This document shows, one piece after another, positions 29,513 to 45,232 of a stretch of 64,000 nucleotides of DNA (the stretch's first letter is position 1; each line of letters starts with the position of its first letter). The notes beneath the pieces are model-generated. The model saw only the letters and a list, made by a program, of their open reading frames with translations. It was not told the origin of the DNA and searched no databases. Made by a program: the position numbers and the translations under genes. This DNA comes from Microtetraspora sp. NBRC 13810 (GTDB lineage Bacteria > Actinomycetota > Actinomycetes > Streptosporangiales > Streptosporangiaceae), in contig NZ_BSRQ01000012.1 in the NCBI RefSeq assembly GCF_030268685.1, positions 62,001-126,000 on the forward strand, in the 5' to 3' direction.

Positions 29513-29588
29513 GGGGCCTTAGCTCAGCTGGCAGAGCGCCTGCTTTGCAAGCAGGATGTCAGGAGTTCGAATCTCCTAGGCTCCACCA
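29513..29588 (+). tRNA. tRNA-Ala (TGC)
   Basis: The acceptor stem pairs GGGGCCT with AGGCTCC (one G-U pair). The D arm contains TAGCTCAGCTGGCAGAGC. The anticodon stem-loop CCTGCTTTGCAAGCAGG has anticodon TGC, and the T arm is AGGAGTTCGAATCTCCT. The discriminator is A29585 followed by an encoded CCA to 29588. Its 3' half is the core of the direct repeats at 40760 and 43615, so it is the attachment site for integrated elements and is restored intact after integration. Confidence 0.97.
29544..29585 (+). repeat. Direct repeat DR1: attL core in the tRNA-Ala 3' end
   Basis: This 42-bp core runs from TTTGCAAGCAGGATGTC to CTAGGCTCCA, from the anticodon loop to the end of the tRNA. It recurs with one mismatch at 40760-40801 and with one mismatch plus a 2-bp insertion at 43615-43658. 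Downstream sequence (29586-29653) is about 85 percent like the sequence after the third copy, by eye, so the element end next to the core is conserved too. Confidence 0.88.
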
Positions 29589-29654
29589 CCATCAGCCCAG
29601 GTCAGAGCACCACGGTCGGCCTGGGCTTCGTGCTGCTGCGGCGATCTGAGAGCC

Positions 29655-29680: not shown

Positions 29681-29772
29681 CACTGCCTCCTCCCGGCGCA
29701 GGTTGCTCGGCACGTCGCCGTGCCGTCAGCGCGACCAGGTCATCAAGCAGCGCGACGCACTCGGGACGTGAG

Positions 29773-30081
29773 GTGGCCAGTGCCGAGAGGCGCAGGCCGT
29801 ACGGGGTCTTCGTGAGTTCCTGTCTGGCGCCGCACGTCGCTCTTGAGCAGGCCGGGTGTGTCCGGCTGGACTGGATCCAGCCACGAGGGGATACGCGGCA
29901 CAGGGTGATCGCCTGGACGTGCCATTGTCAGGACGTCGTGTTTGAGGTGTGCACAGCCGGCGGGCTCAGCTACCTCAGGCGTACAAATCAAGGCCGGCTC
30001 TCCACACACGAAACTCACCGGGTATCCGTCTGCGAGGGCTGGGGCATGTGGCTCGCGCTTCTGACAGGGCAAGCAGCGTAG
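29773..30081 (+). CDS. Small conserved actinomycete protein, element-associated
   Basis: 102 residues from GTG 29773. The C-terminal part (HRVIAWTCHCQDVVFEVCTAGGLSYLRRT, ending WGMWLALLTGQAA) resembles a family of short actinomycete proteins of unknown role with a CxC pair and a LLTGxA ending. I know it only as a hypothetical family. It is the first gene of element 1, next to the left arm, and is separated from the AIPR gene by about 630 bp without a recognised gene. GTGAG just upstream is a weak ribosome-binding site. Confidence 0.5.
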   Translation: MASAERRRPYGVFVSSCLAPHVALEQAGCVRLDWIQPRGDTRHRVIAWTCHCQDVVFEVCTAGGLSYLRRTNQGRLSTHETHRVSVCEGWGMWLALLTGQAA

Positions 30082-30711
30082 AACTTACAGCGGGACGAGC
30101 GCTGCATCGAGGCCGTTGCCGCGCTTCGGACCAACGGGGACACGAGCAGGCGACTCAAGATCACAAAATCGCCCGGTCTGCTGGATGAGAACTTTCTCTA
30201 CGTCCTTAAAGGCGGGGCCCACCGCGCGTGAACGGTCGGCGGCCGCGCTGCGGCTCTCCGGCCGGTCGCGACCGCCGCCGCTCACGCGCTGAGGAATGCC
30301 AAGCGGCAGCCTCAGGTGAGAAAACTTTCGGCAGCCTGGATGTCCTGTCCGTAAGGCTGCCGCGCGGCTTCCGTTCCTCAGGCCTGGCGGCCTTGCGGTA
30401 CGGGTCCACTTGCCATCGAATGAAGGCGTGAGCCGCGACCGAAAGTCCCGTGGGGCGGAAGCTCTGCGCGAACGCTCCGGCAACTCGTGTTAGGTCCGGG
30501 ATGCGCCCAGACACCCGAGCCCGCTCGAAATCGTCGCTTACAGCAGAGTCGAGACGTCAGGAGACTCAGCGGCCGGAGGCTTACGGGCAGCAGCGGGAAC
30601 GAGGATCACCTCCCCACGCTCCCGGTCGGCCACGGTAACGAATGGACCCGCACAGATCCGCTGTAGCGGCCGACCCCCTATCGTCCTAAAGAGCATGACG
30701 CTGCTGGCAAC
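30082..30711. other. Gene-poor stretch of element 1
   Basis: I see no gene here. Open frames on both strands (for example minus 30085-30483) lack recognisable motifs and a convincing ribosome-binding site. A missing integrase or excisionase would be expected near this end, but no tyrosine recombinase R-H-R-Y pattern or serine recombinase motif can be read in any frame. The stretch probably represents decayed element backbone. Confidence 0.5.
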
Positions 30712-32838
30712 CTACTCGTCATAGCCTTCTTCGCGTTGCGCGAGGACATCGAGCGCCAGTTGCCAGAGGGTGCCTTCCCCCTTGATCGCCCAACGAGAAG
30801 GTCCTTGAACCGCGACCGGACGCACCTCGGGATCCCAGCTCGCTCTGTTCCAGATCTCCGTCACCAGGCCTGTCGGCGAGTAGTTCTTGCCATCAACGGC
30901 CCAGACGAGTGGCTTGGAGCGATCGTTGGTCCATGCCGCCTGGCCTCGGCGAGAATCTTCAGCCAGCCAACGCTCGATAGCCTCACGCTCAGGCTTGGTG
31001 GCACACTCGAACGCCAGGATGGCGCCTTCTTGGATTCGTCCAGCATCCACGAGGGTGGGGACCGCGTTCGGTCGTCTCGGACGCTTCGGGCGGGGTGCGG
31101 GCCTGTAGTCGGCCGGCAGGTCGGGGACGAGTGCGGTATCCGCCACATGGGCTACAACGAGATCGACGAGCTGCACGCAGCGAGAAGGGTTCATGATCGT
31201 GCTGCTGATAAAGGATGTGACTCCAAATTCGGAGTCGATCGCAACGATCAACCAGGTCAGGATGGAAGCAACCAGGTCCGGGATTCTCGCGAGCACCGAC
31301 GTGAGGTCATAGTCGGGCGTGTCGATGCCTTCTAGATCAATGCATCTGAACACGATGTGAGTGACCAGAAAATCTGCCTGATCAGCCACAGACCGGGCGC
31401 GTCCTGTCCACTGGATCTTGGCGTCTTGGAGGGCCGCGCCTACAGCCCTCATGATGACGACGGAGTGCCAGATCTGGAAGGCGCTGGGCGCGGGCTTGAA
31501 CAGGAGCGCGTAGGTTTCGGCCTCCCACAGGAGATCTGTGCTTCGCTTCGCTCGAACGGCTAGGTCGACCTTGCGGTGTGCGCACGCCAGCGCGGTCGCC
31601 GCCTGCACGACAGAACAGCCGGCCTCGGGAAGCGGGTCGGGCTCACCCCGCCGGAATGTATAGGTCTTGTCAAGCGAGAGGGCGAAGTCCTCGCGGATCT
31701 CGACCTGTGCTGGATCCAGCGCGACGACAAGGTCCCTCTGTTCAACACGGTTCTGAACATTCGTCGCCCGTGTGACGGAGTTGCCGAAACCCGCTGGGCA
31801 GTTACCCGTGCTGATGACCTTGACCGCGACATACGCCTCCGCGACCTGGTCAGGATTCCTACGCGCGGCCTCTGCGATGGCCGCTACAGTTTGGGCACCG
31901 TTAACCACACTCGCGCCATCCATGAGCACCTCGGCAGGACCCTTGTGACTCAGGCTCCATGCCTTCCGGTCGACGCGATCGCACAAGACAGTAATCCCGT
32001 TGTTGAAGTACCAGAAGTCGTCAGGGCTGGTGAGGAGAGTGTTCACCAGCTCGTGATTCACTGCGGTGAGACCCAGCGAGCGCCGGATGTTCTTCGAAAA
32101 GAGCCGATCTCCATTCGCCACGTACCACTGCGCGATTTCGACAGCCGACACCCGCCCCTGGTATGCATCGTAGGGCTCGCCGATGCGGAGCCATTCGTCC
32201 ATGTGAGCGCTCAGATGGATCGGTGGCTCCGCGAGCCCGTCTCGCACGGCTTCCCAGACGCGCTGGAGCGACCAAACATCATGGTCGAGCTTCTTGTCGA
32301 AGCCGACGTTGAACTCATCCTCTAGGGCGTGGAAGCGTTCCAACACCGCCGCGGACAGAGCCCCCTCACCCATGAGCACGACCACGAGCGTGATGCGGCC
32401 TCGCGGATCTGTGAGAACCGTCTTGACCTGCTCCGCATGTGCCTCAAACCGCTCGTTGAACCGCTCGAACTTCTGCTGGTCGATTGAGGTGAGCCCATCC
32501 CAGAACGCACGGGCGTCGTCGATGCCGAAGCCCGCGGTTCCTTTGTCCTTCCACTTGCTCTGGATCAAGAGCAAATGCAGGCCGTTGTCCGCGAACGCGA
32601 TCGCGTCGATGCCGACATCGTTTGCGCCATCAATGACGGCTTCAGCGGCTTGCTCTGGCGTGAGATCGGCAAGTCGCCGGGCGACGAAGGCCGCCAAGGC
32701 CCGGCTGAGGAACTTTCGCTCGAACTCCTCGGGCGCCATCTTCTTCGAGTCGGCCATGTGGATCAGGCCATCGAACTCCTTGTGCAGCGCGCCTGCGACG
32801 TGCTGAACTCGCAACGGCATCCCGCCTGGCTTGGCCAT
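30712..32838 (-). CDS. AIPR-family protein with Mrr-like nuclease motif
   Basis: 708 residues. Residues 65-100 read as a restriction-endonuclease core: GANDVGIDAIAFADNG, then LLLIQSKWK, giving D78 and Q93-S-K95 of the Mrr-type D...QxK site. The middle holds the AIPR (abortive infection phage resistance) motifs RVSAVEIAQWYVANGDRLFSKNIRRSLG, VNTLLTSPDDFWYFNNGITVL, and DGASVVNGAQTVAAI. The end (AGRIQEGAILAFEC and PLVWAVDGKNYSPTGLV) resembles a RAMA/DUF4357-type module found in restriction-modification proteins. ATG 32838 has AAGGGGAG upstream. It follows hsdM after 109 bp on the same strand, so it may be the last gene of the operon or have its own promoter. It is likely a phage-triggered effector. 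Confidence 0.85.
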   Translation of the reverse strand: MAKPGGMPLRVQHVAGALHKEFDGLIHMADSKKMAPEEFERKFLSRALAAFVARRLADLTPEQAAEAVIDGANDVGIDAIAFADNGLHLLLIQSKWKDKGTAGFGIDDARAFWDGLTSIDQQKFERFNERFEAHAEQVKTVLTDPRGRITLVVVLMGEGALSAAVLERFHALEDEFNVGFDKKLDHDVWSLQRVWEAVRDGLAEPPIHLSAHMDEWLRIGEPYDAYQGRVSAVEIAQWYVANGDRLFSKNIRRSLGLTAVNHELVNTLLTSPDDFWYFNNGITVLCDRVDRKAWSLSHKGPAEVLMDGASVVNGAQTVAAIAEAARRNPDQVAEAYVAVKVISTGNCPAGFGNSVTRATNVQNRVEQRDLVVALDPAQVEIREDFALSLDKTYTFRRGEPDPLPEAGCSVVQAATALACAHRKVDLAVRAKRSTDLLWEAETYALLFKPAPSAFQIWHSVVIMRAVGAALQDAKIQWTGRARSVADQADFLVTHIVFRCIDLEGIDTPDYDLTSVLARIPDLVASILTWLIVAIDSEFGVTSFISSTIMNPSRCVQLVDLVVAHVADTALVPDLPADYRPAPRPKRPRRPNAVPTLVDAGRIQEGAILAFECATKPEREAIERWLAEDSRRGQAAWTNDRSKPLVWAVDGKNYSPTGLVTEIWNRASWDPEVRPVAVQGPSRWAIKGEGTLWQLALDVLAQREEGYDE

Positions 32839-32947
32839 GATCTCCCCTTGTCGGAACGTGACAAAGAGATCATGGCACCGGCGGGGTGCAAATCTAGACC
32901 ATCCGGATGTTTATCCCCGGACATCCCGACCCATAGCTCCGAGGGCG

Positions 32948-34507
32948 CTACTGCCCCTCCCTGGCAGGTATCGACAAGGATTCGGCTATTGTTCGGATAT
33001 GCTCCAGGGCGGCTTCAAGGTCGGCGGCAATGGAGTTGGCAATCTCGTATGGCGACAACTCCTCATCGAGGTCAGCCGACGTGTCCTTAAGCCAGGAGAT
33101 GTCGAGGTTGACCTTGTCCCGTGCCAGGAGTTGTTCGTATGTGAACGGCTTGAAGCGTTCGGTTTCGACGCGCTCCTCTCGATCCTTGCCCGGCAGATAG
33201 GCGTTGACGAACTCCTGGAGGTGCTCGCGACGGAGTGGGCGCTGCTTGAGAGTGAAGCGCTCCCCCGTGCGGAAGTCGTACACCCAAAGCTTCTTGGTCC
33301 ACGGCTCAGCCGCAGGTCGCTTCCGCTCGAAGAACAGTACGTTGGCCTTGACGCCACCTGCGTAAAAGATCCCGGTGGGGAGACGCAGCATGGTGTGCAC
33401 GTCGTAGTCCTTGAGCAGTTCCCGGCGAATCTTCTCCCCGGCGCCACCCTCGAAGAGAACGTTGTCGGGCAGGACCACCGCCGCTCGACCGCCGATCTTC
33501 ATCAGCTTGGCGATGTGCTGCACGAAGTTGAGCTGCTTATTCTTCGTCTTCACCCAGAAATCGCGCTCGGAGTAGATCGCCTCGTCCTTGACGACCTTGC
33601 CGTTCTCGTCGACCACGTTGATGGCGGTCTTCTGCCCGAACGGCGGATTGGCCAGGACCAGAGTCGCGTGGACTGTCGGCTCGTTAACCAGGGCGTCGCC
33701 GACCTTGATGATCTCGTAGTGCTCGTCCGGCACCACCCCATGCGTCAGCATGTTCATCGCCGCGAGACGGGCGGTCGCCCGCACCAGCTCAACCCCATGG
33801 AACGCCAATCCCTTGGTCACCCGATTCCGCTGGTCCGGGTTGAGTGCTTCCATCCGGAACTCTCGGCGGATGTACTCGTTGGCCAGCAGCAGGAAGCCAC
33901 CAGTTCCGCAGGAAGGGTCAACGATCATGTCGTCCGGGGTGGGTTGCATCACGTCCACCATGGCCCGGATCAACGGCCTCGGCGTGAAGTACTGCCCCGC
34001 ACCGGACTTGACGTCGCTCGCGCTGCGCGACAAGAGCTCCTCGTAGGCGTCACCCTTGACGTCAACGCCTTCCCGGGACCAGTGAATCTTGCCGATCAGC
34101 TCCTTGATCAGGCGCTCCAGCAGCGAGGTCGTCTGGATCCTGTTCTGCGCTCCCGCGAAGATCAGGCCGAACATTCCCTTGCGCTTGCCGAGCTCGCGCA
34201 GCAGATGCTCGTAGTAGTCCTTGAGGTCTGGACCCTTCTTGCTGGCCAAGAGGTCCCAGCTGATCCCCACGGGGAGAATCGGCGGTGGCGTGGGCAGCTT
34301 GCGCCGCTCCGCCTTCTCTTTGGCCTTCTTCTCCTTCTCGTCCATCATCTTGAGGAAGAGCAGGAATGTGAGCTGTTCGACATAGTCGATCGCGGGCACT
34401 CCGGCATCCCTGAGGACATCGCAGTAGCTCCACAGCTTGTCCACTAGCGCTCGGGTGTGCGCCGCCGTCTCCACAGACTCCGGATCAATCACATCCACCT
34501 GCGTCAC
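32948..34507 (-). CDS. hsdM: Type I restriction-modification DNA methyltransferase subunit
   Basis: 519 residues. The N-terminal helical domain (VDKLWSYCDVLRDAGVPAIDYVEQLTFLLFLKMMDE) is followed by the N6-adenine methyltransferase core. The motifs are GQYFTPRPLIRAMV (171-184), motif I DPSCGTGGF (197-205), and catalytic motif IV NPPF (287-290). With two HsdM and one HsdS it methylates the host recognition site and protects it. Its ATG overlaps the hsdS stop (ATGA). A short inverted repeat GGATGT/ACATCC (32915-32936) lies between its stop and the AIPR gene. Confidence 0.95.
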   Translation of the reverse strand: MTQVDVIDPESVETAAHTRALVDKLWSYCDVLRDAGVPAIDYVEQLTFLLFLKMMDEKEKKAKEKAERRKLPTPPPILPVGISWDLLASKKGPDLKDYYEHLLRELGKRKGMFGLIFAGAQNRIQTTSLLERLIKELIGKIHWSREGVDVKGDAYEELLSRSASDVKSGAGQYFTPRPLIRAMVDVMQPTPDDMIVDPSCGTGGFLLLANEYIRREFRMEALNPDQRNRVTKGLAFHGVELVRATARLAAMNMLTHGVVPDEHYEIIKVGDALVNEPTVHATLVLANPPFGQKTAINVVDENGKVVKDEAIYSERDFWVKTKNKQLNFVQHIAKLMKIGGRAAVVLPDNVLFEGGAGEKIRRELLKDYDVHTMLRLPTGIFYAGGVKANVLFFERKRPAAEPWTKKLWVYDFRTGERFTLKQRPLRREHLQEFVNAYLPGKDREERVETERFKPFTYEQLLARDKVNLDISWLKDTSADLDEELSPYEIANSIAADLEAALEHIRTIAESLSIPAREGQ

Positions 34508-35937
34508 GACGACACCTCTCCCTGCTCGAACAGACTCTCCTGGCCCCCGGCCGAGACAACCCCTCCAGCATCAGCGGGGAATGAGATCTTCTTGATCCTA
34601 GTACGACTTACGCCACGTTTGGTGCGATTGCGAGGCATCGCCTCCGCCGCCCGCTCAAGCCGAATTCGATCGAGCAGCCCCTCCGCCGGCTCGTCACCGA
34701 CCTCTGGCTGCGTCAATCGACCTCGGAATGCCTCTCCGAAAAGGCGGCGCCGGAGATCGCGGCATCGACTTATCGAGACAGTGGCTGCTCCACCAATCGT
34801 TCCAACGAGGGCTTCTGCCTCCTGGATCGTGGCCACGATCTGTGCCTGCTTCTCCAGCGGTGGGAGGGGAATCCTGATCCCCTCCAAGATGGACTGGTTG
34901 ATCTTGTAGATTCCGGCAGTCGTTCGAGCCGCACCTTCGATCTGCTGACGGACTAGATATGACTGCCAGACGATACGTAGGAATTCAGAATCGATACGCT
35001 CACGATTAGCACGGATTCGGATCATGGTGTCCGGGAAGGCAACTGGGTCGGGTTCATCCATCAGAAGCGCGCCTCGCCCGACCAGCGAAAGCGAGCCGTT
35101 GCCTCTGCTCACGAAGAAGTCGCCGCGCTTCACCAAATGGGGGCGTGCCTCGCGCTCCGTCCAGTCGCCCCCTTTTCGCTCACAGAGGTCAAGATAGCCG
35201 GAAGCCATCGCAGTAAGCCTCAAGACTGGGAAGCCGTCGTCACGTGTAGGGACAGAGCGTCCATTGATGAGCTTCTCGGCGAGAATAGTGCCCAGTTCAA
35301 CTGACTCGATATGGTCAAGCTCACGCGCAACCACAGCCTCCAGATACCTTCCAACTCGGCCATTCGCCTGCGTCAGAGCTGATATTGCTGCGTCGACCTC
35401 CACCAAGCGATCGTTGAGGATCGTGACAATGCGCTGTTGTTCTGCCAGAGGCGGGATAGGAAGGGGAAGTTCTTTGATTCGCGAGAGACTGAGCGAGGCG
35501 AGATTTGTTGTCTGCTTTCCATTCGTCTCGAACCACGTTTGAGCGCACTCGTTGGCGAACCACGCCAGAAGCCTCGGATCAAGAATCCCGTCGATGACGC
35601 GTGCTCGGAAAACGTGATTTTGATGGATGCAATTCGGAATCTCGCCGTCCCACACCCAGCCGCGACCGAGCTTGTCTCGATCGCCCCCTTCGTTCAGCAA
35701 CACGTCCCCGGGCAACAGCTGTAGCCGTTCAGCAGTCGCTTCGGGTACTCGGATCTCAGTCACGGTCGTCAGATCAAGACGACCTCGCTGGACATTAGCG
35801 ACACGCAGGTACGGGACAAGCGGGAGATTAGGATCCGACTGCTTCTTGGCATCCTTCGTGACGCCTCCGACGACATCGGCGATCTCACCGAGAGTTGTCC
35901 ACGCCCACGAGTCAGGAGTCGGGAGCAATGGCGTCAT
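34504..35937 (-). CDS. hsdS: Type I restriction-modification specificity subunit
   Basis: 477 residues. Two target-recognition domains are each followed by a conserved helix: LPIPPLAEQQRIVTILNDRLVEVDAAISAL in the middle and IPLPPLEKQAQIVATIQEAEAL near the end. The protein reads a bipartite DNA target. Its first half starts PTPDSWAWTTLGEIADVVGG. GC content is lower than in the flanking chromosome, as often seen for exchanged HsdS genes. It overlaps hsdR upstream and hsdM downstream by ATGA junctions. The specificity cannot be read from sequence alone. Confidence 0.93.
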   Translation of the reverse strand: MTPLLPTPDSWAWTTLGEIADVVGGVTKDAKKQSDPNLPLVPYLRVANVQRGRLDLTTVTEIRVPEATAERLQLLPGDVLLNEGGDRDKLGRGWVWDGEIPNCIHQNHVFRARVIDGILDPRLLAWFANECAQTWFETNGKQTTNLASLSLSRIKELPLPIPPLAEQQRIVTILNDRLVEVDAAISALTQANGRVGRYLEAVVARELDHIESVELGTILAEKLINGRSVPTRDDGFPVLRLTAMASGYLDLCERKGGDWTEREARPHLVKRGDFFVSRGNGSLSLVGRGALLMDEPDPVAFPDTMIRIRANRERIDSEFLRIVWQSYLVRQQIEGAARTTAGIYKINQSILEGIRIPLPPLEKQAQIVATIQEAEALVGTIGGAATVSISRCRDLRRRLFGEAFRGRLTQPEVGDEPAEGLLDRIRLERAAEAMPRNRTKRGVSRTRIKKISFPADAGGVVSAGGQESLFEQGEVSS

Positions 35938-38900
35938 GCGGTGAGTTCCTTCGTCAGGTCGTCCAGGAGTGCTGTGGCGCGGTCGCCGAACGCATCGTAG
36001 AAGGCGTCCTCACCCCCGCGTGAGTCGAACGGCGCACAATCCAGCGTGTCATCGGCAATTTCGGCGCTACCAATGACGATCTCGCACAGTCGGTCCAAGA
36101 ACCACTTCTGCATCGGCGAGAACTGCCCCTGAGCCGACTCGTGACGAGTCAGCCAGGCAGTGTAGCGCTCCTCAACGACCGTACGGAACGGCTTCAGCTC
36201 GGAGTCCAGTCCAAGCTCGTAGCGCAGGATCGAGACCAGGTCCGTGGGCTTCGCCTCATGCCCGCGCGTTCCCATCGGAGTGCCTGACGCCTCGTAACAA
36301 GTCCACAGTCGAGTCACGTTGCCGACCTTGGGAAGCCGCTCGATCCGATTGGTCAGGTCCGTCACTTCCCCCCAGGACAACTTGGCAGTGCCGCCACCCT
36401 CGACGGCTCGAATAAGCATGATCGAATCATGGTGCTCCGCCAGATAGGCGCGGAACGACTCAACCGTCTGCTGCGCCAGCTGCTCCCTGGTGAAGATCAC
36501 GGTGTGCGTGACCTCGTCCTGGCTGATCTCGTCAATCGTCTGATCATGCTTGGTCCGGATCTCCGCGATGCGCTCGCGCAGCTCAGGGTTGTCGGCCAGG
36601 GGCTGAACAGCCTGGCGTAGCCGTTCACTCACGGCGCCCTGCCCACCCTCGTCAGCCAACAGGGTGAGCGTCTGGGTGTCCACCGCCGAGGCGAGTCGCC
36701 GTACCAGGTCGCGTAGCGAAGTCCCCTGTCCAACAGCAGCCAGCTCGTCACGCTCAACGTCGCTGATCTGCCGATCCAGAGCATCCAGCCGAGATGCCAA
36801 GGTTGCGGTCTGGTTCTCGTCCAGACCCATGCGGGCGGCACGTGCCAACAGTTGGCGAAGGCTGAGGCGGTTATCGGGGTCGCGGTTGAGCGGGGTGGCA
36901 TCGACCAGTGGGTGATCGGTGACGCCGACCGCGTCCACAATGACGAACCGGTCCTTGCGGAGCACCCTTTCGTCAGGAGTGACCGCCTGGAAGTCGTCCG
37001 GATCGATCGTCCGGCTGCCGCGGCCTTTCATCTGCTCGAAGTAGATCGGGCTCTTCACGCTGCGCATGAAGAACACGCACTCCAAGGGCTTAACGTCAGT
37101 CCCCGTCGCGATCATGTCCACGGTGACCGCGATGCGCATCTCCGAGGTGGTCCGAAAGCGACGCAGGAGCTCCTTTGGGTCGTTGCCGGCCGCCTTGGAG
37201 CGATAGGTGATCTTCGCGCAGAAGTCGTTGCCCTTACCGAAGACCTCACGCACCATCTGCACGATGTCATCAGCGTGGGAGTCGTCCTTGGCGAAGATCA
37301 GCGTCTTAGGCACCGAGGTGGTGTACTGCTCAAAGAGTGCGGGCAACACGCGATCCCGGTAGGCGGTGATCACCGTGCGGATCTGATCACGGGCGACAAC
37401 AGACCGGCCGATCTCCTCGGCGCCGTACGTGAGGTCCTCATCGAGCTCTTCGTACCACTGCTGCCTCGTACGGCGGTCGCGGCGCGGCACCACCGTCCGG
37501 GTGCCCTCCTCATCCAGCCCTGGAATGGTCGAGCCCGACTCGCCGATCTTCGTCTTAACCCGAAACACCGCGAAGTCGACGTTGACCTTGTCTTGCACCG
37601 ACTCGTCGTAGGTGTATTCGCTGACCGGCTCGCCGAAGAAGGCTCGCGATTGCACGCTCGGCGTGGCGGTCAGGCCGATCACCGGGGCGTCGAAGTAGGA
37701 CAGGACCGCCCGCCAGCGGCCGAAGATCGAGCGGTGGCACTCGTCTACCACGATCAGGTCGAATGCCTCTGGTGGCAGCCCCTCGTTGTAGACGGCGTCG
37801 ACCGGGGCCGGCGGCTCGAACTCGTCGATAGCCTCATCATCGGCATCCCCCGCGGGGAGTGGCTGGCCGGACAGCGCCCGGTACAGCCGCTGAATCGTCG
37901 TGACGACCACGCTGGCCGAATCCAGCACCGTGCCTGAGGACAGGCGCTGAACGGTGTAGTCCTCGCCCAGGGTCTGCCCGCTGTTGGTGACATAGCGGGC
38001 GAATTCTCCTGCTGCCTGATCGCCTAGGTTGTTGCGATCCACGAGGAACAAGACACGCTTGGCTCCACCGTACTCAAAGAGCCGGTAGGCCAGCGAAACC
38101 GCTGTGAAGGTCTTGCCAGCGCCCGTAGCCATCTGCACCATCGCCCGGCGGTGGCCGCTGCTCAGATGGCCTTCCGTGTTTCGAATTGCCGTCGCCTGGG
38201 CGGGACGCAGACTCGACTCATCCAGCGTGGGCATGGCCTGAAGCCGAGCGCGGAAGGTCGGAGCCTCAGGGTTGTCGTCGGCCTCGGCCATCCAACGGGC
38301 GAGTGTCTCTGGCCGGTGGAAGGAGAATACTTCGCGCGAGGCGGCGTCCGGGTCGAGCCTGAAGGTGAAGCGGGTCTCGATGCCGGTGCTTTCGTAGCGG
38401 AACGGCAGCGGCTCGTCGCGCCGCCACACTGCCATCCGGTAATCACCAGGAATCGCGCCGGCGTAGTCGCCCGACTGCCATTCCACGCCGATGAGCGAGG
38501 TGCCCTCACGCTTGGCCTCGATGACGCCGACAAGCTTGCGGTCGACGAACAGGACGTAGTCTGCGCGCTTGCGCCCAACGGGGAACTCACGCACCACGAT
38601 GCCGCGCCCGGCGGAGTGGTCGATCTGATCTAGGTCCTGGACCACCCAGCCGGATTCAGCGAGAGCCTGGTCGATCTTCGTACGGGTCTGAGCCTCGGTC
38701 AGTGGCGCGGCCCGCCGTGCCCGCTGAGCAATGGCCTCTCGCTGGCTGGGCCGTACCTTGACCGGCTCGCGACCCTCGAACTCCTTGCGTAGGCCTTGGA
38801 GCTGCTTCTCCATCGCCAGCACCTGATCCGCCGCCGTCTGGCGTTCGGCGCGTGCCTTGGCGAGCTCGGCCTCGGCTTGCTGACGTGCTTCAGCCTCGGC

Positions 38901-39446
38901 CTGCTGACGCGTTCGGGTGCCGTCCATCGCGAGCTTGGCGTCAGCCAGCTCGTTCTTCAGCCGCTCCAGTTCGGCGGCGAGGTCTGGGGTGGTGATGGCG
39001 GCCGACGGCGGCTGGGGTGGTACGAACGCGACCAGTTCGCGTGCACCACTGATGGCGCGGTGTAGCAGCAACCCAAGCTGGAAGCAGCGCTCCAGACAGC
39101 GCAGGGCGCTGGCGGCCTCAGCCATGTGCCGGTGCACCGCGGCGTTGCCGGTCTTGCGGATCTCGTGCAGGGCGGAAGCGACACCTGGGGTGATCACATC
39201 TGCGCGGCTCAGCGCCCGGATCTGATCGACCAGGTCAGTTCCCTCAACGGGGATCCCCGTTGCTCGCACCAGCACCGAGGCGAAGACTTCGATGAACTGC
39301 CGGCACTTAACCAGCGCGCCGTTCGGGTCGGTGAAGACGATCGACTCCGCGCCAGCGCCATAGGCCACAAGCAGCGATTCATGCTGCAGGAGGAAGCCAA
39401 AGTTCGCCGAATGCTCCGCGAGAACCCGCAAGCGAGGATCAACCGC
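35934..39446 (-). CDS. hsdR: Type I restriction enzyme R subunit (nuclease-translocase)
   Basis: About 1170 residues from GTG 39446, which has GGAGGGT eight bases upstream; the open frame runs to a TTG at 39512. Order of parts: DUF4145-type HEPN-like N-terminal domain (SALHEIRKTGNAAVHRH), coiled coil (QQAEAEARQQAEAELAKARAERQ), PD-(D/E)XK nuclease (GRKRADYVLF ... GVIEAKR, about D296, E310, K312), then SF2 helicase with GAGKT (about 442-446), DECH (about 568-571), LTATPS and QMKGRGSR. It cleaves unmodified DNA after translocation. It is the first gene of a leftward hsdR-hsdS-hsdM operon, an unusual order. It is divergent from the HEPN gene. Confidence 0.93.
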   Translation of the reverse strand, partial: AVDPRLRVLAEHSANFGFLLQHESLLVAYGAGAESIVFTDPNGALVKCRQFIEVFASVLVRATGIPVEGTDLVDQIRALSRADVITPGVASALHEIRKTGNAAVHRHMAEAASALRCLERCFQLGLLLHRAISGARELVAFVPPQPPSAAITTPDLAAELERLKNELADAKLAMDGTRTRQQAEAEARQQAEAELAKARAERQTAADQVLAMEKQLQGLRKEFEGREPVKVRPSQREAIAQRARRAAPLTEAQTRTKIDQALAESGWVVQDLDQIDHSAGRGIVVREFPVGRKRADYVLFVDRKLVGVIEAKREGTSLIGVEWQSGDYAGAIPGDYRMAVWRRDEPLPFRYESTGIETRFTFRLDPDAASREVFSFHRPETLARWMAEADDNPEAPTFRARLQAMPTLDESSLRPAQATAIRNTEGHLSSGHRRAMVQMATGAGKTFTAVSLAYRLFEYGGAKRVLFLVDRNNLGDQAAGEFARYVTNSGQTLGEDYTVQRLSSGTVLDSASVVVTTIQRLYRALSGQPLPAGDADDEAIDEFEPPAPVDAVYNEGLPPEAFDLIVVDECHRSIFGRWRAVLSYFDAPVIGLTATPSVQSRAFFGEPVSEYTYDESVQDKVNVDFAVFRVKTKIGESGSTIPGLDEEGTRTVVPRRDRRTRQQWYEELDEDLTYGAEEIGRSVVARDQIRTVITAYRDRVLPALFEQYTTSVPKTLIFAKDDSHADDIVQMVREVFGKGNDFCAKITYRSKAAGNDPKELLRRFRTTSEMRIAVTVDMIATGTDVKPLECVFFMRSVKSPIYFEQMKGRGSRTIDPDDFQAVTPDERVLRKDRFVIVDAVGVTDHPLVDATPLNRDPDNRLSLRQLLARAARMGLDENQTATLASRLDALDRQISDVERDELAAVGQGTSLRDLVRRLASAVDTQTLTLLADEGGQGAVSERLRQAVQPLADNPELRERIAEIRTKHDQTIDEISQDEVTHTVIFTREQLAQQTVESFRAYLAEHHDSIMLIRAVEGGGTAKLSWGEVTDLTNRIERLPKVGNVTRLWTCYEASGTPMGTRGHEAKPTDLVSILRYELGLDSELKPFRTVVEERYTAWLTRHESAQGQFSPMQKWFLDRLCEIVIGSAEIADDTLDCAPFDSRGGEDAFYDAFGDRATALLDDLTKELTA

Positions 39447-39623
39447 CACCCGTACACCCTCCGTCCGGCCCGTCTCCTTAAGTGTGCCCGACGCACATCG
39501 TGCGACCGGCAATAAAATGCGCGTCTCGTGCGCGCAAGGTAGGGCACAATCTGATCACGGGTTCTCCCGTGTCGCCGTGGGCATAACTGCCCAGCTGGAG
39601 CAGCCACCCCCGAAGGACGCCGC

Positions 39624-40289
39624 GTGCCCCAATACCCGCAGAAGACTCAGGCCTTTGTTGATTTTGAGCGCAACTTGGCCTACGCCAAGCAGCTCATCCA
39701 CGCGGGCAGTCACCTGGCGGCTATGGGAGTCACATCCTGCGATGTCGATGACCTGCACAGGGCTGCTTGGGTCCAGGGCGTGGCCGCGCTCGACCACTGG
39801 GTGCACCAGGAGGTCTATCACCGCACGATCCTGCTCGCTCAACAGCCCGGCATCACCAAGCCACGCAAGTTCCTCGAATTCAGCATCCCCATGGAGCTGT
39901 TTGAGAAGGTGCACCACTCGGATCTCCCCCTGGACGTCGCCCTCCGCCGCCATCTGCGCACGGTCATCGGGCGGAAGACCTACCAGGGCCCTGACGACAT
40001 CAAGGACGGCTTCGCCATCGTCAGCGACGTCTCCCTCTGGGCTACGGTCACCCGAATCGTCAACGATGAACGCGAGGCAGGTGCCGAGAAGCTGAGTGTC
40101 AACCAGGTTCGCAAGTTGCTCGGCTCAATCGTCTGGCGGCGAAACAAGATCGCTCACGAGTCAGATCGCGACCACGACAACAACGATGAGAAGCGCCCCA
40201 TCAACGCCGCGCAGGCCATGGAGGCCGTCGAGACGCTCGAAATGATCGCCGCCGCAATACTCGTGGCCATCGACGGGGCGCCTTCATAG
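39624..40289 (+). CDS. HEPN-domain protein, putative RNase effector
   Basis: 221 residues from GTG 39624, with GAAGGAC upstream. The sequence is largely helical. The N-terminal half has a HEPN-type helix (DLHRAAWVQGVAALDHWVHQEVYHR). The C-terminal half carries the HEPN active-site motif R-x4-H as R173-NKIA-H178 in VWRRNKIAHESDRD. HEPN proteins with this motif are metal-independent RNases used in toxin-antitoxin, abortive infection and CRISPR systems. It is divergent from hsdR with about 177 bp between. By analogy with PrrC, which sits with a type I system and cuts tRNA when the system is inhibited, it may be a guard RNase; this is inference. No MNT-type antitoxin is adjacent. Confidence 0.72.
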   Translation: MPQYPQKTQAFVDFERNLAYAKQLIHAGSHLAAMGVTSCDVDDLHRAAWVQGVAALDHWVHQEVYHRTILLAQQPGITKPRKFLEFSIPMELFEKVHHSDLPLDVALRRHLRTVIGRKTYQGPDDIKDGFAIVSDVSLWATVTRIVNDEREAGAEKLSVNQVRKLLGSIVWRRNKIAHESDRDHDNNDEKRPINAAQAMEAVETLEMIAAAILVAIDGAPS

Positions 40290-40315
40290 CGGCTGAGCAG
40301 GAGTTTCTTCCAGTG

Positions 40316-40639
40316 ATGGACACTGATGGACGATCTCTAGCTGGGTACGGATCGGATGCGGACGTCCCGTCGACAGCGTACGAGGCGATCACGCCCGAAA
40401 TGGTGGATGCACGGCTACTTGAGGCCACGGCGACCAAACGCGTAGATCGTGTTGTGGGAAGGAGCAAAGGCGAGGACGCAGGTGCCAAGAGACGGATCAT
40501 GTCCAAGGTGGCGCGGGACCCGGACAGTCCGAGCGCCCAGCGAGACCTCGGCCGGATCGCCCAGTCAGGTGCCGATCGGAACAACCTGGCGAATGAAGAG
40601 GATCGCCGGCACCTGGAGGAGGATGAGGAGGGCCCCTGA
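40316..40639 (+). CDS. Small charged protein downstream of HEPN gene
   Basis: 107 residues from ATG 40316, 26 bp after the HEPN stop and on the same strand. It is highly charged (VDARLLEATATKRVDRVVGRSKGEDAGAKRRIMSKVARDPDSP, ending EEDRRHLEEDEEGP) with no hydrophobic segment. I do not recognise it. Its position makes it a candidate antitoxin or regulator for the HEPN protein. It could also be spurious: no strong ribosome-binding site is seen, and it is the last frame before the right arm site. Confidence 0.45.
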   Translation: MDTDGRSLAGYGSDADVPSTAYEAITPEMVDARLLEATATKRVDRVVGRSKGEDAGAKRRIMSKVARDPDSPSAQRDLGRIAQSGADRNNLANEEDRRHLEEDEEGP

Positions 40640-40653
40640 TGAGGTGGGTTGCT

Positions 40654-40679
40654 GTACAGCAGAGAAGTACAGCAACAGG
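40654..40679 (+). promoter_or_regulatory. Right arm-type site of element 1
   Basis: GTACAGCA, five bases, GTACAGCA, then ACAGGG, lie about 80 bp before the second tRNA core. This matches the left arm at 29655-29680 in sequence and orientation. The matching distance from the cores at both ends supports an integrase arm-site role. Confidence 0.55.
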
Positions 40680-40759
40680 GCCGCGCAGCGCCTCACTCTG
40701 ACACCCATCAGCGCACGCCTGAGCATGGGGGATGCCTCAACAACGTGTGACTGGCTCCC

Positions 40760-40801
40760 GTTTGCAAGCAGGATGTCAGGAGTTCGGATCTCCTAGGCTC
40801 C
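40760..40801 (+). repeat. Direct repeat DR2: junction of elements 1 and 2
   Basis: This is a copy of the tRNA-Ala 3' 42 bp with one mismatch (GTTCGG for GTTCGA). The preceding bases GTGACTGGCTCCCG match those before DR3 but not the tRNA, so they are element sequence. The following AGCTCAGGTCAGAG matches the element ends after DR1 and DR3. The surrounding 40640-41048 holds no gene I recognise. It cannot be a functional tRNA because the acceptor and D arms are missing. Confidence 0.85.
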
Positions 40802-41048
40802 ACTCAAACGAAAGCTCAGGTCAGAGGCCATATCCTCCGTCTGGGCGTTGACCAGGGGTTTTTCGAAGGCTTCGTGCCCGGCGCGGCTCTCGCATGCTCG
40901 ATGCGGCCGAAGGCGAGCGCAAACGCAGAGGAAACGGCGGAGCTGATTTCCTGACGCAGGCTCTGCCCGGACTCCTCCACCGCGACCGCCGGGGAAACGG
41001 GCCGGGCAGATCGCCGCCGAAATCGCCACGACCCTCAGGAGCCCGGCC

Positions 41049-42395
41049 ATGCACGACGAAGAGACTCTTCCGGGACTGGATCGTCGACAGTTCCTGCGAC
41101 GCGCGGGGCTGGCCGCCGGAGTAGGTGCGGCGCTGCCGCTGCTCGGCATGGGTGGCGCGAGCGCCATGGCCGCCGCTCCGTGGTCCGCCGACGACCCCGA
41201 CCAACTGTTCAAGGACGGTCATTTCAAGCGTGCCGAGCAAGGTTACCGGCGCCGGCTGAAGGAGAACGCGGACAACGCGCAGGCCGCCGCGCAGATCGGC
41301 TACATCGCTCTGCTGTCCAACCGGTTCGCCGACGCCGAGAAGTTCCTCAAACGCGCCGTCAGCCTGAAGCCCGACGACGAATTCTCCCTCTACCAGCTCG
41401 CGGACTGCTACGTCCGCCAGGACAGGCTTTCGGAAGCCGTGCCCTGGCTGCGCAAACGCGGCGAGCTGACCGGTTCGCAGACCGACCTCGCCTTCGCCAA
41501 GCTGTACGAGACGATCCGGGGCACCCCCTGGCAGGTGCACGGCCCGCAGACCACCCGGATCCCCTTCCTCGGGCTCGAACCCCTGCCGCACATGATGATC
41601 TCCATCAACGGGACACAGCCGAGGATCTTCCAACTCGACACGGGAGCGACGACGGCCGGCCTCAGCATGCAACTGGCGAAGGAGGCCGGCCTGGAGGTGA
41701 TCTCCGAGAGCAGGGGAAGCGCCGACGGGCAGCAGTTCACGATGTATTACGGCATCGCCAAGTCGGTGCGTATCGGCGACCTGGAGGTCCGCAACGCGCC
41801 CGTCCACTGGAACGAGGCCGACCGGCCGGACCTGCCCGACGGCACCGAGGCGCAGGGCACCATCGGCACCGTGCACTTCTACCATTTCCTGACCACCATG
41901 GACTACGGTCACCAGCAGTTCATCATGCGCCGCAAGACCGAGGCCAACCTGCGCAGGGTCCGTACCGAGGCCGCACGGCTCAAGGGTGACGTCCTGCCGC
42001 TGTGGCTGGCGAAGGACCATTTCCCCTGCACGCTGGGCTCGCTCAACGACTTCGGGCCCCGGGTCGTCACCTTCGACACCGGCGGCCCCGGCCGGGGCGT
42101 CGGCACTTCGCTCGACCTCGCCGGACGCGCCGGCATCGAGCTTGGTGAGCCCGAGCAGGGGCGGGGCGGGGTGCGCTACCCCATCGCTCCCGAGCGGATC
42201 AGCCTCGGCAAGGCGACGCGGCGGCGGGTCAAGGGGTGGGCGGAGGAAAGGCCCAAGGTCGGCGCTGGGATGAAGTTCGACACGATCGCCAACTTCACCC
42301 ACGACTTCTTCAAGCCGTTCGCCATCACCTTCGACTACGCCCACATGAACCTGTACATCACCGGCGACTCCATGAACCCGGACATGGGCCGCTAG
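41049..42395 (+). CDS. Tat-exported TPR/retropepsin-like aspartic protease
   Basis: 448 residues. A twin-arginine signal (LDRRQFLRRAGLAAGVGAALPLLG) is followed by about two and a half TPR repeats at residues 50-140 (FKDGHFKRAEQGYRRRLKENADNAQAAAQIGYIALLSNRFADAEKFLKRAVSLKPDD). The C-terminal 280 residues carry two DTG motifs: FQLDTGATTAGLS (Asp197) with a later GTIG, and VTFDTGGPGRGVG (Asp343). Bacterial retropepsin-like proteins usually have one DTG and dimerise, so a single chain with two DTG sites could form its own active site. It is the first gene of element 2 and probably acts outside the membrane. Confidence 0.75.
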   Translation: MHDEETLPGLDRRQFLRRAGLAAGVGAALPLLGMGGASAMAAAPWSADDPDQLFKDGHFKRAEQGYRRRLKENADNAQAAAQIGYIALLSNRFADAEKFLKRAVSLKPDDEFSLYQLADCYVRQDRLSEAVPWLRKRGELTGSQTDLAFAKLYETIRGTPWQVHGPQTTRIPFLGLEPLPHMMISINGTQPRIFQLDTGATTAGLSMQLAKEAGLEVISESRGSADGQQFTMYYGIAKSVRIGDLEVRNAPVHWNEADRPDLPDGTEAQGTIGTVHFYHFLTTMDYGHQQFIMRRKTEANLRRVRTEAARLKGDVLPLWLAKDHFPCTLGSLNDFGPRVVTFDTGGPGRGVGTSLDLAGRAGIELGEPEQGRGGVRYPIAPERISLGKATRRRVKGWAEERPKVGAGMKFDTIANFTHDFFKPFAITFDYAHMNLYITGDSMNPDMGR

Positions 42396-42654
42396 GGGTG
42401 GAGGGCGGCCTGGGGTTGGAGATGGGCCCCGGAGGTAGGCCGCGTTTGGCGGTACGTGTTGTACGGCGAACGCAGCATTACGGCCTCTCCAGGTATCTGA
42501 GGGCGGCGTGCGCACAGCGGCCGCCCTGCCTGAAAATTGGGCGGCCTCTCTGAGCTGTGGGCGCATCCAAGGAATTAGGTGATCGCCTGGTCTTTAAGCG
42601 CTATCTCTTCCGACGGGACCTCGCTGTAGATGTTCATGCTTACCGAGATCGGCT

Positions 42655-42831
42655 ATGCCGGAGAATCTGCAACGCCACTCGTGGGTGGACATCGAGGGGG
42701 ACGAGCAGGTCTTCCGCGTGGCGTGGGCGTGTACCTTGCGGACGCCGGCATCGGTGAAGCTTCGCCGAAAGTTACCAGGTCAGCAGTGGTACGAGACTGC
42801 CCGCGGTGCTCGTACTACATCCGTGTCCTGA
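42655..42831 (+). CDS. Candidate small ORF in element 2
   Basis: 58 codons from ATG 42655, reading MPENLQRHSWVDIEGDEQVF and continuing RVAWACTLRTPASVKLRRKL. The first two thirds favour G/C in third positions as real genes here do, and the composition is protein-like. No ribosome-binding site is obvious and I know no family. It could be the remnant of a longer gene. The rest of 42396-43008 shows nothing further. Confidence 0.3.
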   Translation: MPENLQRHSWVDIEGDEQVFRVAWACTLRTPASVKLRRKLPGQQWYETARGARTTSVS

Positions 42832-43008
42832 CCTGCGAAGTACCGGGGAGCTGACAAAGGGCCGGTACAGCCCTGTGGTCCTGGCCCTCCCTTGAACGCA
42901 TGCCCGTCTTGGTTGACGATGGCAAAGACGCTCTCACGAGCCGAAGCACGGGACCACGAAGCCAGCAGTCCCTCTAATGCGAGGGACGGAGCGGGAAGGG
43001 GCTGGAGT

Positions 43009-43512
43009 ATGGCGGCAGTTTATCCTGAGCGTAGGCAGTGGTTGACCGACAACCTCATGAGTGGCGGTATTTTCGACTACACATCCATTCATATCGGCAC
43101 GATCCGGGGACTTAAGCTCTGGGCCCACAGCTCTGACGATTTCACTCCCTCGAAGGAGGAGGTGGACACCATCATGAGAGCCTGTGAATCTATGATAAAT
43201 CCCTATAGCGTCGACATCGCCGGCCAAACGTACTGGCTACCCGGATGGAGCATTCACCACCCGGAGTGGCTTGATGACGGCCTCTTTCATGGTCGCCGGG
43301 AGGATAACGGTGGAGCCTTCTGCCTGGTGGCCAACGTGGGGAATGAACAAGTGAGGCGAACAATGGGCGTCATCGCGGTACACTCCCGACCTCCCGGCTT
43401 CATCGACTCCACCCCCGGGGATGCTGTGCTTACGGGGGAATTTTTTGAGAAAGGTGAGCAGTTGGTGCGCGACGCCGCGCTCGCGCTCGACAAACACCTC
43501 TGGCACTCATAG
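43009..43512 (+). CDS. Profilin-like protein
   Basis: 167 residues from ATG 43009, eight bases after GGAAGGGG. The order of features follows profilin: an N-terminal helix with RRQWLTDNLMSGGIFDYTSI, then LKLWAHSSDDFTPSKEEVDTIM (compare profilin VWAQS and xxFxxEEI), VDIAGQTYWLP (compare GxxYxVI), DNGGAFCLVANV (compare GGxxxxK), and a C-terminal helix GEQLVRDAALALDKHLW. Profilins bind actin and are almost confined to eukaryotes and some archaea, with scattered bacterial examples. The match is by eye and modest. It sits in a mobile element and may target an actin-like protein, but that is speculation. Confidence 0.55.
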   Translation: MAAVYPERRQWLTDNLMSGGIFDYTSIHIGTIRGLKLWAHSSDDFTPSKEEVDTIMRACESMINPYSVDIAGQTYWLPGWSIHHPEWLDDGLFHGRREDNGGAFCLVANVGNEQVRRTMGVIAVHSRPPGFIDSTPGDAVLTGEFFEKGEQLVRDAALALDKHLWHS

Positions 43513-43614
43513 CAGCGAAACCGCCAACACCAATCCACCTGAAACGACGAAGGGCCCCAGCCGGCACGGCAGAGCAGGGGTCCATCACGTCAAGCGCTGG
43601 GTGACCGGCTCCCG

Positions 43615-43658
43615 TTTGCGAGCAGGATGTCAGGAGTTCGAATCTCCTAGGCTCTCCA
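43615..43658 (+). repeat. Direct repeat DR3: third copy of the tRNA-Ala 3' end
   Basis: The core matches the tRNA from TTTGCGAGCAGGATGTC (one A to G change) to the end, with an extra CT in GGCTCTCCA. The bases before it (GTGACCGGCTCCCG) match those before DR2. The 65 bp after it match the element end after the tRNA by eye at about 85 percent. Confidence 0.85.
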
Positions 43659-44254
43659 CGACCATAAGCTCAGGTCAGAGCGCCATGCTCGGCCTTGGCT
43701 TCGTGCTGCTGAGGGCGATCTGGGGGCGATCTGGGACGTGCGGCCTGAGGGCCGGTCCCGGCGGCGCGCAGGACTTCGGGCCGTCGCCGCACGCCCGCCG
43801 CGCCGTACCTACGCCATCCACCGGGCCCTGGGTCGCGCCGCCGCCCCCATGCAGCACGACGATCGCCACGGGGTGGCCCAGGTCTGCCGTGGTCGGGGGC
43901 GATCTGCGAGCCGGGGTTCGTTCCTCACCTCGGCTCGCCGGGTAATGGGGCTGATCACTGTGTGGACGACACCTGTCTATCGGCGCTACAGATCATCGGA
44001 GATACCACGGCAGCAGCTCTCCAGCGGCAGGGCCGCTTGGCAGTGCGGCCCGCGACAGTGAGACTCCGGACCGCTCGTACGCGGGGGTCCCGGTGTGAAC
44101 CGCGCCTCCGCCGACCGGGCAGGCGTGCCCCCTACCCGTAGTACTCCAGAGCTACAGGAGAAGTGCGCTCCTCGGCAGGACGCCGACCACGAAGTGGGAT
44201 CCATAGCTTCGGCACCCGAAGCATGAGAGATCCACTACGGAAGGACCGTCCCCC
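43659..44254. other. Non-coding stretch after DR3
   Basis: The first 65 bp repeat the element left end found after the tRNA (ACCATAAGCTCAGGTCAGAG, CTTCGTGCTGCTG). Beyond that I see no gene: open frames lack motifs and ribosome-binding sites. The stretch probably combines the remains of a third element and the promoter region of the hydrolase operon starting at 44255. Confidence 0.5.
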
Positions 44255-45232
44255 ATGGGGTCCCACTCGCCCGGGAGTCGTCTGCGCCGCACCCTGCTCG
44301 CCTCGTTCGTCGCCGCGTCGGTGGCCGTGCCGGTGTCGGGTGCGGCCCGTGCCGCGGCCGTACCCGCGCCCGTTCCCGGCGCCTCTGCCGCTTCGGCCCC
44401 GCTGCCGGCCATGACCCTCGCGGCTCTGGACCGGCGGTACACCGCCGGCCGTGCCGCCATCCGCGCGGCCGGACGGACAGCCACCCGTCACGGTGACCGA
44501 TGGCGGGCCTCGATGCTGCGCGCCATGGCGGACCCGGCGCGTCACTTCCTGTTCTTCGACGGCCGCGACGGCGGCCGTACCGCGGAGGTATTCGGCGAAC
44601 TTTCCGGGGCCGGGCGGATCGCCGTGGTGGTCCCCGGGGCCGACACCAACCTCGACAAGTACGGACCCCTGCGCGGCGGCTCGATGCGACTGCTGCGCAT
44701 GCTCGGCGACCGGTCGGCCGTCATCGCCTGGCTGGGCTACCGGACACCTGGCACGGTGAGTCTCGAAGCGATGACACCCGATCGGGCGGAGGAGGCCGCC
44801 CCCGGGCTCCGCGCCTTCGTGCGGGAGCTGCGCACTGCCAAACCGGCTGCCCGGATCTCGCTGCTGTGCCACTCCTACGGGAGTGCGGTCTGCGCCCGGG
44901 CCGCCCCCGGGCTGGACGTCGCGGACATCGTCCTGTACGGCAGCGCCGGCACCACCGCCGACAATGTCGCCGCGCTGCGCACCCGGGCGACCGTCTGGGC
45001 TGCCCGGGGCACCGGCGACTGGGTCGGCGGAGTACCGCACACGCGGCTTCGCCTGCCCTTCGCCACCATCGGGCTCGGCGCCGATCCGGTCGATCCGGAG
45101 TTCGGCGCCCGCGTCTTCGCGGCGGGCGACGGCGGCCACAGCGCCTACCTGTCCGCCGGGTCCCTGTCGCTGCGGAACATCGCCAGGATCGTCTCCGGAC
45201 AGGTTCCCTCTGAGGCGGGCAGGGGTGCGTGA
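44255..45232 (+). CDS. Secreted alpha/beta hydrolase (DUF1023 type)
   Basis: 325 residues. A Sec-type signal peptide (RLRRTLLASFVAASVAVPVSGAARA) is followed by an Ala/Pro-rich linker and a hydrolase domain of the Abhydrolase_8/DUF1023 kind: GRIAVVVPGADTNLDKY, then SLLCHSYGSAVCARAA with the nucleophile Ser, and a late His in GDGGHSAYL. The start is ATG 44255 with GGAAGGACC upstream. It overlaps the next gene by 8 bp and heads a four-gene operon with an acyltransferase and a two-component system. It may hydrolyse an ester or amide in the envelope. Confidence 0.85.
   Translation: MGSHSPGSRLRRTLLASFVAASVAVPVSGAARAAAVPAPVPGASAASAPLPAMTLAALDRRYTAGRAAIRAAGRTATRHGDRWRASMLRAMADPARHFLFFDGRDGGRTAEVFGELSGAGRIAVVVPGADTNLDKYGPLRGGSMRLLRMLGDRSAVIAWLGYRTPGTVSLEAMTPDRAEEAAPGLRAFVRELRTAKPAARISLLCHSYGSAVCARAAPGLDVADIVLYGSAGTTADNVAALRTRATVWAARGTGDWVGGVPHTRLRLPFATIGLGADPVDPEFGARVFAAGDGGHSAYLSAGSLSLRNIARIVSGQVPSEAGRGA

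What the first reader, a model, noticed from the sequence alone, without database searches (positions are those of the whole stretch)
43009..43512. Profilin-like protein in a mobile element of a bacterium
The 167-residue protein follows the order of profilin features: an N-terminal helix with a Trp, LWAHSSDDFTPSKEEVDTIM, a G-x-x-Y strand, a GG-containing strand and a long C-terminal helix. Profilins act on actin, and bacterial examples are rare. Carriage on a tRNA-integrated element suggests horizontal movement. It might target a bacterial actin-like protein, a polyproline sequence, or a host cell.
Basis: inference. Interest (0 to 1): 0.62.

Follow-up and report, generated by a model that had tools for sequence, protein, structure and literature searches.

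The report
Divergent profilin relative on bacterial island
A bacterium carries, on a small island beside a tRNA gene, a strongly changed relative of profilin, a protein that controls actin in animal, plant and fungal cells, although no such actin was found in the bacterium, so what the protein binds is an open and testable question.

Summary
The ORF is real and the profilin reading holds, for a highly divergent protein. Alone it scores 21 bits (E 3.8e-4) against Pfam Profilin, below the curated cut-off of 25. A profile of seven other actinomycete profilins ranks it above 5000 of 5000 shuffles; a Roadblock profile does not. An alignment-based AlphaFold model matches profilins at Z 14.4; the single-sequence model is inconclusive. 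The same genome holds two more profilin genes, one textbook (139 bits), one with an in-frame TGA. Profilins occur in 6 of 341 genomes of its family and 7 of 392 of another genus; these 13 carriers give only weak actin-profile hits. The gene lies in a 2.9-kb stretch bounded by partial tRNA-Ala copies; the C6 gene lies in a like array at tRNA-Val beside a pSAM2-type element, the C9 gene 2.3 kb from tRNA-Tyr. A dispersed repeat lies near all three. Function is unproven. Closest precedent: Microcystis PfnM, which has an actin partner.

The parts
43009..43512 (+). divergent profilin-like gene, 167 aa
41049..42395 (+). other gene of the same tRNA-bounded stretch: TPR plus aspartyl-protease domains; the start looks like a twin-arginine signal (by eye)
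29513..29588 (+). tRNA-Ala (TGC), intact; inferred integration site
40761..40803 (+). partial copy of the tRNA-Ala 3' end (43 nt, 98%), inner boundary of the profilin stretch
43615..43722 (+). partial copy of the tRNA-Ala 3' end plus flank (108 nt, 89%), outer boundary, 102 bp after the profilin stop codon
43701..43857 (+). copy of a dispersed repeat (BLAST extent 43739-43944); a strong copy lies about 20 bp from the C9 profilin, and a weak one 161 bp from the C6 profilin, whose nearest strong copy is 6 kb away
30712..32838 (-). AIPR/AbiU-like gene of the inner stretch
32948..34507 (-). type I restriction-modification methylase (HsdM) of the inner stretch
34504..35937 (-). type I specificity subunit (HsdS)
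35934..39512 (-). type I restriction subunit (HsdR)

Best explanation
The gene is a far-diverged descendant of a profilin gene that actinomycetes took from eukaryotes and that now moves between them as cargo of tRNA-borne islands (shown: homology, island position, paralogues; inferred: eukaryotic donor, direction of transfer, present mobility). Because no carrier genome shows a eukaryote-type actin, the product most likely no longer works as partner of an actin of its own. I commit to this mechanism: it stays in the cell as a small profilin-fold binding protein that uses its sheet and C-terminal-helix face to hold a bacterial partner, a peptide or a subunit of a filament protein such as MreB (inferred; no partner was shown).
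For: Homology: Pfam Profilin E 3.8e-4; above 5000/5000 shuffles with profiles of 7 and of 8 other bacterial profilins; alignment-based model with the profilin order of elements, whose first 39 listed entries are profilins, profilin-like proteins or profilin fusions, Z 14.4 to 11.6, the first other fold a Roadblock domain at 11.1. Paralogues in the same genome: C6, 139 bits over the whole domain, best PDB match S. pombe profilin E 1.5e-29, and C9, 30.5 bits. Islands. No eukaryote-type actin: 13 of 13 carriers; in the first six the best hit frame bears an MreB motif. A function is kept in at least one lineage: four related profilins of the genus of G081 show dN/dS 0.26-0.42 in 6 of 6 pairs (ratios from dN and dS). 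No signal peptide seen by eye. In that other lineage, genes of SpoIIE-phosphatase or STAS type lie next to or within 2 kb of profilins at 4 of 5 loci looked at with Pfam (L027, L084, L086, L087; not L085), which leans towards an internal role, though these families are common in such genomes (recalled).
Against: The protein alone is under Pfam's cut-off (21 of 25 bits) and hhalign gives only 37% probability. The good structural match comes from a model whose alignment holds profilins; the single-sequence model (pLDDT 47.5, pTM 0.48) resembles GAF domains at least as much as profilins (best Z 6.3 GAF, 5.3 Loki profilin), and plain Foldseek listed no profilin in its top 50 for either model. No close relative of this exact protein was found: in 341 family genomes only the gene itself and one short weak match in G526 (E 0.003), none in genome contigs, viral contigs or plasmids, so selection on it could not be measured. 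The C9 and G646 copies carry an in-frame TGA, and 4 of 6 computed pairs of the family's other copies have dN/dS 0.73-0.99. No partner was identified.
Confidence: 0.4

Rival explanations
1. A protein against eukaryotes: once released or injected it binds the actin (or proline-rich proteins) of amoebae, fungi or plants and disturbs their cytoskeleton.
For: Carriers show no eukaryote-type actin. The paralogue C6 is close to fungal profilin and keeps W3, Y6, W31 and the last Tyr. Fast protein change in the family (4 of 6 computed pairs at dN/dS 0.73-0.99) would fit conflict. Microcystis PfnM still binds rabbit actin (PMC3254629, Discussion read).
Against: No signal peptide by eye; no delivery gene among the neighbours scanned with Pfam. 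No gene family found beside the window's gene recurs beside the other profilins. In this protein W3 and the last Tyr are lost. No search for secretion systems of the genome was made.
Confidence: 0.27
2. Decaying cargo: copies of captured eukaryotic genes ride on islands for a while and drift without a function.
For: In-frame TGA in C9 and G646; unrecognisable N-terminal third in the Streptomyces RLB1-9 plasmid copy; identity between open copies close to neutral drift (observed 0.53 and 0.74, simulated 0.48 and 0.71); frames stay open by chance in 13-37% of neutral runs.
Against: Full-domain Pfam scores of about 100-140 bits in six copies; purifying selection in four related genes of another genus; this frame is open over 167 codons after great divergence, with coding-like codon positions.
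Confidence: 0.25
3. Not a profilin but a Roadblock/LC7 or other member of the same fold class, common in actinomycetes.
For: Roadblock domains come next in the structure list (3kye, Z 11.1), and the weak hits of the profiles in other genomes are mostly Roadblock-like by eye.
Against: A Roadblock profile gives it -1.2 bits, rank 539 of 2934 listed sequences, while both profilin profiles rank it directly under the C9 copy and above every shuffle. Pfam lists Profilin, not Robl_LC7.
Confidence: 0.06

Closest known systems
PfnM/ActM of Microcystis aeruginosa PCC 7806 (PMC3254629: abstract, Introduction and Discussion read)
   Same: Eukaryote-type profilin in a bacterium, on a genomic island, ascribed to transfer from a eukaryote.
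   Different: The paper gives PfnM 84% identity to eukaryotic profilin, beside a eukaryote-type actin that it binds. Here no such actin was found, the genes are scattered and in three copies, and the window's protein is highly divergent.
Eukaryotic profilins (Pfam PF00235; S. pombe 3d9y, Acanthamoeba 1acf)
   Same: Predicted fold and order of elements; profile match.
   Different: Below the Pfam cut-off, two insertions of 7-8 residues and about 15 more C-terminal residues in the alignment, W3 lost.
Asgard archaeal profilins (PMC8410842, passages read)
   Same: Profilin fold in a prokaryote.
   Different: Asgard archaea have actins of their own (passages read); the window's paralogue C6 has eukaryotic profilins as its best PDB matches.
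'profilin' WP_164331309.1 of the Streptomyces sp. RLB1-9 plasmid
   Same: Actinomycete profilin on a plasmid, already annotated by name.
   Different: Only a database annotation; N-terminal third not recognisable.
pSAM2-type integrative elements of actinomycetes
   Same: The C6 paralogue lies in an array beside FtsK, RepSA and integrase genes at tRNA-Val.
   Different: No such core was found in the window's stretch.

Membership tests
Pfam PF00235 Profilin | score over the curated cut-off of 25 bits | tested here: not met
   21 bits, E 3.8e-4, residues 10-78. Met by the C6 paralogue (139 bits) and the C9 copy (30.5 bits) of the same genome.
Pfam PF00235 Profilin | profilin fold: helix, two strands, helix, strands, long C-terminal helix | tested here: inconclusive
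   Seen in the alignment-based model, but that model was given profilin sequences; the single-sequence model is of low confidence.
Pfam PF00235 Profilin | sequence homology beyond chance | tested here: met
   5000 of 5000 shuffles beaten with two profiles.
Pfam PF00235 Profilin | polyproline-binding aromatics W3, Y6, W31, C-terminal Y (positions recalled) | tested here: inconclusive
   In this protein R, W, W, and no terminal Tyr by the alignment; all four kept in C6.
Pfam PF00235 Profilin | binding of actin monomers | not testable with these tools
   No eukaryote-type actin seen in the 13 carriers.
Roadblock/LC7 | match to the family profile | tested here: not met
   -1.2 bits with a profile of 8 actinomycete Roadblock-like proteins; no Pfam hit.
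tRNA-borne genomic island | partial copies of the tRNA 3' end bounding the stretch | tested here: met
autonomous integrative element (pSAM2 type) | own integrase, replication and transfer genes | tested here: not met
   None among 12 ORFs scanned inside 29.6-43.6 kb; present beside the C6 paralogue.

The most novel reading that the evidence does not exclude
Actinomycetes share a mobile pool of actin-less profilins, captured from eukaryotes perhaps more than once and spread by tRNA islands, which they use as weapons against, or signals to, eukaryotic neighbours, or to steer bacterial actin-family filaments. The window's gene is among the most remodelled members.
Probability: 0.3. Interest if true: 0.85.

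Novelty: new variant of a known kind. Interest (0 to 1): 0.58.

Why it matters
Profilin is known as an actin regulator. A profilin family kept and moved among bacteria without a eukaryote-type actin would show that the fold has a life apart from actin, and gives small proteins on which that can be tested directly. It also widens the 2012 statement that PfnM was the only known prokaryotic profilin (PMC3254629).

Tried and rejected
Roadblock/LC7 as the true identity: rejected. Eukaryotic contamination: rejected, since the three genes lie inside contigs of 263-408 kb (C12, C9, C6) beside bacterial genes. A conserved operon partner of the window's gene: none found in comparisons of called ORFs around 11 and then 17 loci. 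One search did show some genes shared among L084, L085 and L086, about 1-10 kb from their profilins, and SpoIIE-type phosphatases at L009, L027, L084 and L086; at L009 the phosphatase is about 6 kb from the C9 profilin. Viral carriage: no relative in IMG/VR with this protein or with two profilin alignments, no match of the C6 protein in phages (this protein itself was not searched there), no PHROGs family for three proteins. An RNA in the region: no Rfam match in 40600-44300; none of five repeat copies folded clearly better than its shuffles. Promoter and terminator scan: nothing. Plain Foldseek: no profilin in the top 50. Tree: the grouping of this protein with the C6 type has weak support (86.1/59) on a very long branch, so the donor is left open. 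The G039 match, the G526 match and the nine weakest matches were not counted as profilins; G039 and eight of those nine look Roadblock-like by eye, L053 looked like neither. The dN/dS pairs are six that I chose (one of the C6 type, five of the six possible among L014, L016, L017, L018). The repeat: the profile was built from four of the copies it then found and was run on fetched stretches only; the copy beside C6 is weak (E 3e-5) and was not in the whole-genome BLAST, which scored 40 of 242 candidates, so weak copies elsewhere are not excluded. My chance estimate (about 6e-10) was made after seeing the pattern, with an assumed copy number; I do not rest on it. In one search the third 'cluster' column printed is residue 32, not W31; W31 was read by eye. 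The first phrase search for 'bacterial profilin' was swamped by 'bacterial profiling'. Searches whose listings showed no paper on actinomycete profilins: (open-licence PMC papers only; 10 to 20 titles listed of sometimes hundreds).

Full report
What is there. Window 43009-43512 (+) encodes 167 residues. The gene is poorer in GC (57%) than the window (70%) and its three codon positions (0.59, 0.44, 0.68) look coding. It stands alone, about 0.6 kb after a TPR/aspartyl-protease gene.

Is it a profilin? Pfam's best family is Profilin with E 3.8e-4 and 21 bits over residues 10-78; the curated cut-off is 25 bits, and the next family, ANAPC4, has E 0.0075. NCBIfam and phmmer against the PDB give nothing better than E 0.1. 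A profile of seven profilins from other places gives 11.1 bits, more than any of 5000 shuffles (best 7.6); with the C9 copy added, 13.0 against 5.8. A Roadblock/LC7 profile gives -1.2 bits. hhalign against the seven gives E 3.5e-4 but 37% probability. AlphaFold with an eight-row alignment gives pLDDT 71 and the profilin order of elements; in the second look at Foldseek's 1000 best chains, the first 39 listed entries are profilins, profilin-like proteins or profilin fusions (Z 14.4, 2.5 A over 122 residues for Acanthamoeba profilin), the next a Roadblock domain at Z 11.1. The other rows of that alignment are profilins, so this is not independent. The single-sequence model is poor (pLDDT 47.5) and no nearer to profilins than to GAF domains. 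Plain Foldseek listed no profilin in the top 50 for either model. I conclude that it is a divergent profilin homologue, not a member by Pfam's cut-off.

The genome. The window lies in an 8.97-Mb genome with two more profilin genes: C6:257486-257875(-), 139 bits, and C9:21257-21577(+), 30.5 bits with one in-frame TGA. The C6 protein matches S. pombe profilin at E 1.5e-29 over almost its whole length. In the same family 6 of 341 genomes have a profilin over the cut-off; by contig name and length three of them are Nonomuraea longispora (two copies), N. rhodomycinica and Actinomadura sp. J1-007. In the genus of G081, unnamed and presumably Streptomyces, 7 of 392 have one; in a draw over the phylum, 1 of 396, the own genome. 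Plasmid records with one are Streptomyces sp. RLB1-9, annotated 'profilin', and two records of Streptantibioticus cattleyicolor. An NCBIfam scan of three bacterial profilins found no model.

No actin partner seen. An actin-profile search of the 13 carriers gives stretches of at most 30.2 bits (48.1 with neighbours in the frame) and 45.8 bits (up to 51.3 with neighbours); a eukaryote-type actin should score in the hundreds (inference). In the first six the best hit frame bears an MreB motif, and a second one in G612 looks MreB-like by eye; in the seven others I went by score alone.

Mobility. The tRNA-Ala gene at 29513 has partial 3' copies at 40761-40803 and 43615-43722. The inner stretch carries a type I restriction system and an AIPR/AbiU gene, the outer the protease gene and the profilin. 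On C6, tRNA-Val at 274207-274280 has copies at 261656-261730 and 259370-259419 and a weak one (28 nt) at 252177-252204; the profilin lies between the last two, and the array holds FtsK, pSAM2-type RepSA and integrase genes beside the tRNA. The C9 copy lies 2.3 kb from a tRNA-Tyr; no second tRNA copy was found there. A dispersed repeat of about 160 bp lies about 20 bp behind the C9 profilin and 189 bp behind the window's; a weak copy lies 161 bp before the C6 profilin. A whole-genome BLAST gave six places, three of them strong, in the three profilin regions, the strong C6 one 6 kb from its gene. Other copies on C6 and C15 lie near pSAM2-like sequence.

Selection. Nei-Gojobori dN/dS for six chosen pairs of the family's open copies is 0.73, 0.86, 0.28, 0.83, 0.99 and 0.53, against 0.09-0.23 for 15 MreB pairs (ratios). 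Neutral simulation gives protein identities close to those seen and leaves the frame open in 13-37% of runs, so drift cannot be excluded there. The two N. longispora copies are 72.7% identical in the gene, 74% upstream and 85.6% in the 170 bp behind it; for the C6 pair the figures are 86%, 83.5% and 60%. Four related genes of the other genus give 0.26-0.42 (ratios), so selection keeps those. The method ignores codon bias, which is strong in these genomes.

How it may work. The C6 protein keeps all four polyproline-site aromatics (positions recalled); the window's protein keeps W31 and has W for Y6. Residues shared with any of four eukaryotic profilins are 10 of 35 compared positions in the N-terminal part and 23 of 60 in the sheet and C-terminal helix, the part that faces actin in eukaryotes (recalled). 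In the other genus and S. cattleyicolor, SpoIIE-type phosphatase or STAS genes lie next to or within 2 kb of the profilin at 4 of 5 loci examined with Pfam; this was seen after the fact and the families are common there (recalled), but it leans towards internal signalling. With no actin of its own, no signal seen and no delivery gene among the scanned neighbours, an internal binding role is my first choice (0.4), a protein against eukaryotes the second (0.27), decay the third (0.25).

Compared with what is known. Microcystis PfnM, with its actin ActM, was called the only known prokaryotic profilin in 2012 (PMC3254629, Introduction and Discussion read). Seven searches of the open-licence library listed no paper on actinomycete profilins among the titles shown, though databases already use the name. 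Hence: new variant of a known kind.

Noticed in passing
L004:1549-1551 (C9 copy) and L015 (G646 copy): Both broken profilins carry an in-frame TGA at a place where aligned relatives have Trp; probably TGG to TGA changes, but two cases in two genomes are worth a look at the reads.
   Followed up: partly
window 43701-43857: Dispersed repeat of about 160 bp near all three profilin genes of the genome and in two places on C15 near pSAM2-like sequence; no Rfam match, no fold signal.
   Followed up: partly
window 29589-43614: Two tandem tRNA-Ala-bounded stretches in which no integrase was found; the inner one holds a full type I restriction system and an AIPR/AbiU gene.
   Followed up: partly
L027:8379-9512, L084:8291-9139, L086:6449-7915, L087:10382-11257: SpoIIE-type phosphatase (three) or STAS (one) genes beside or within about 2 kb of profilin genes; a possible link of that profilin subgroup to partner-switching regulation.
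   Followed up: partly
L084-L087 (G813, G1143, G806, G947): A distinct profilin subgroup (100/100 support) in the genus of G081 under purifying selection, with the aromatic polyproline site largely gone.
   Followed up: partly
L008:11766-12296: A SUKH (SMI1/KNR4) family gene in the C6 array, in the stretch next to the profilin's.
   Followed up: no
L023:10356-11813: A Tn3-type transposase gene, on the other strand, ends about 70 bp behind the N. rhodomycinica profilin.
   Followed up: no
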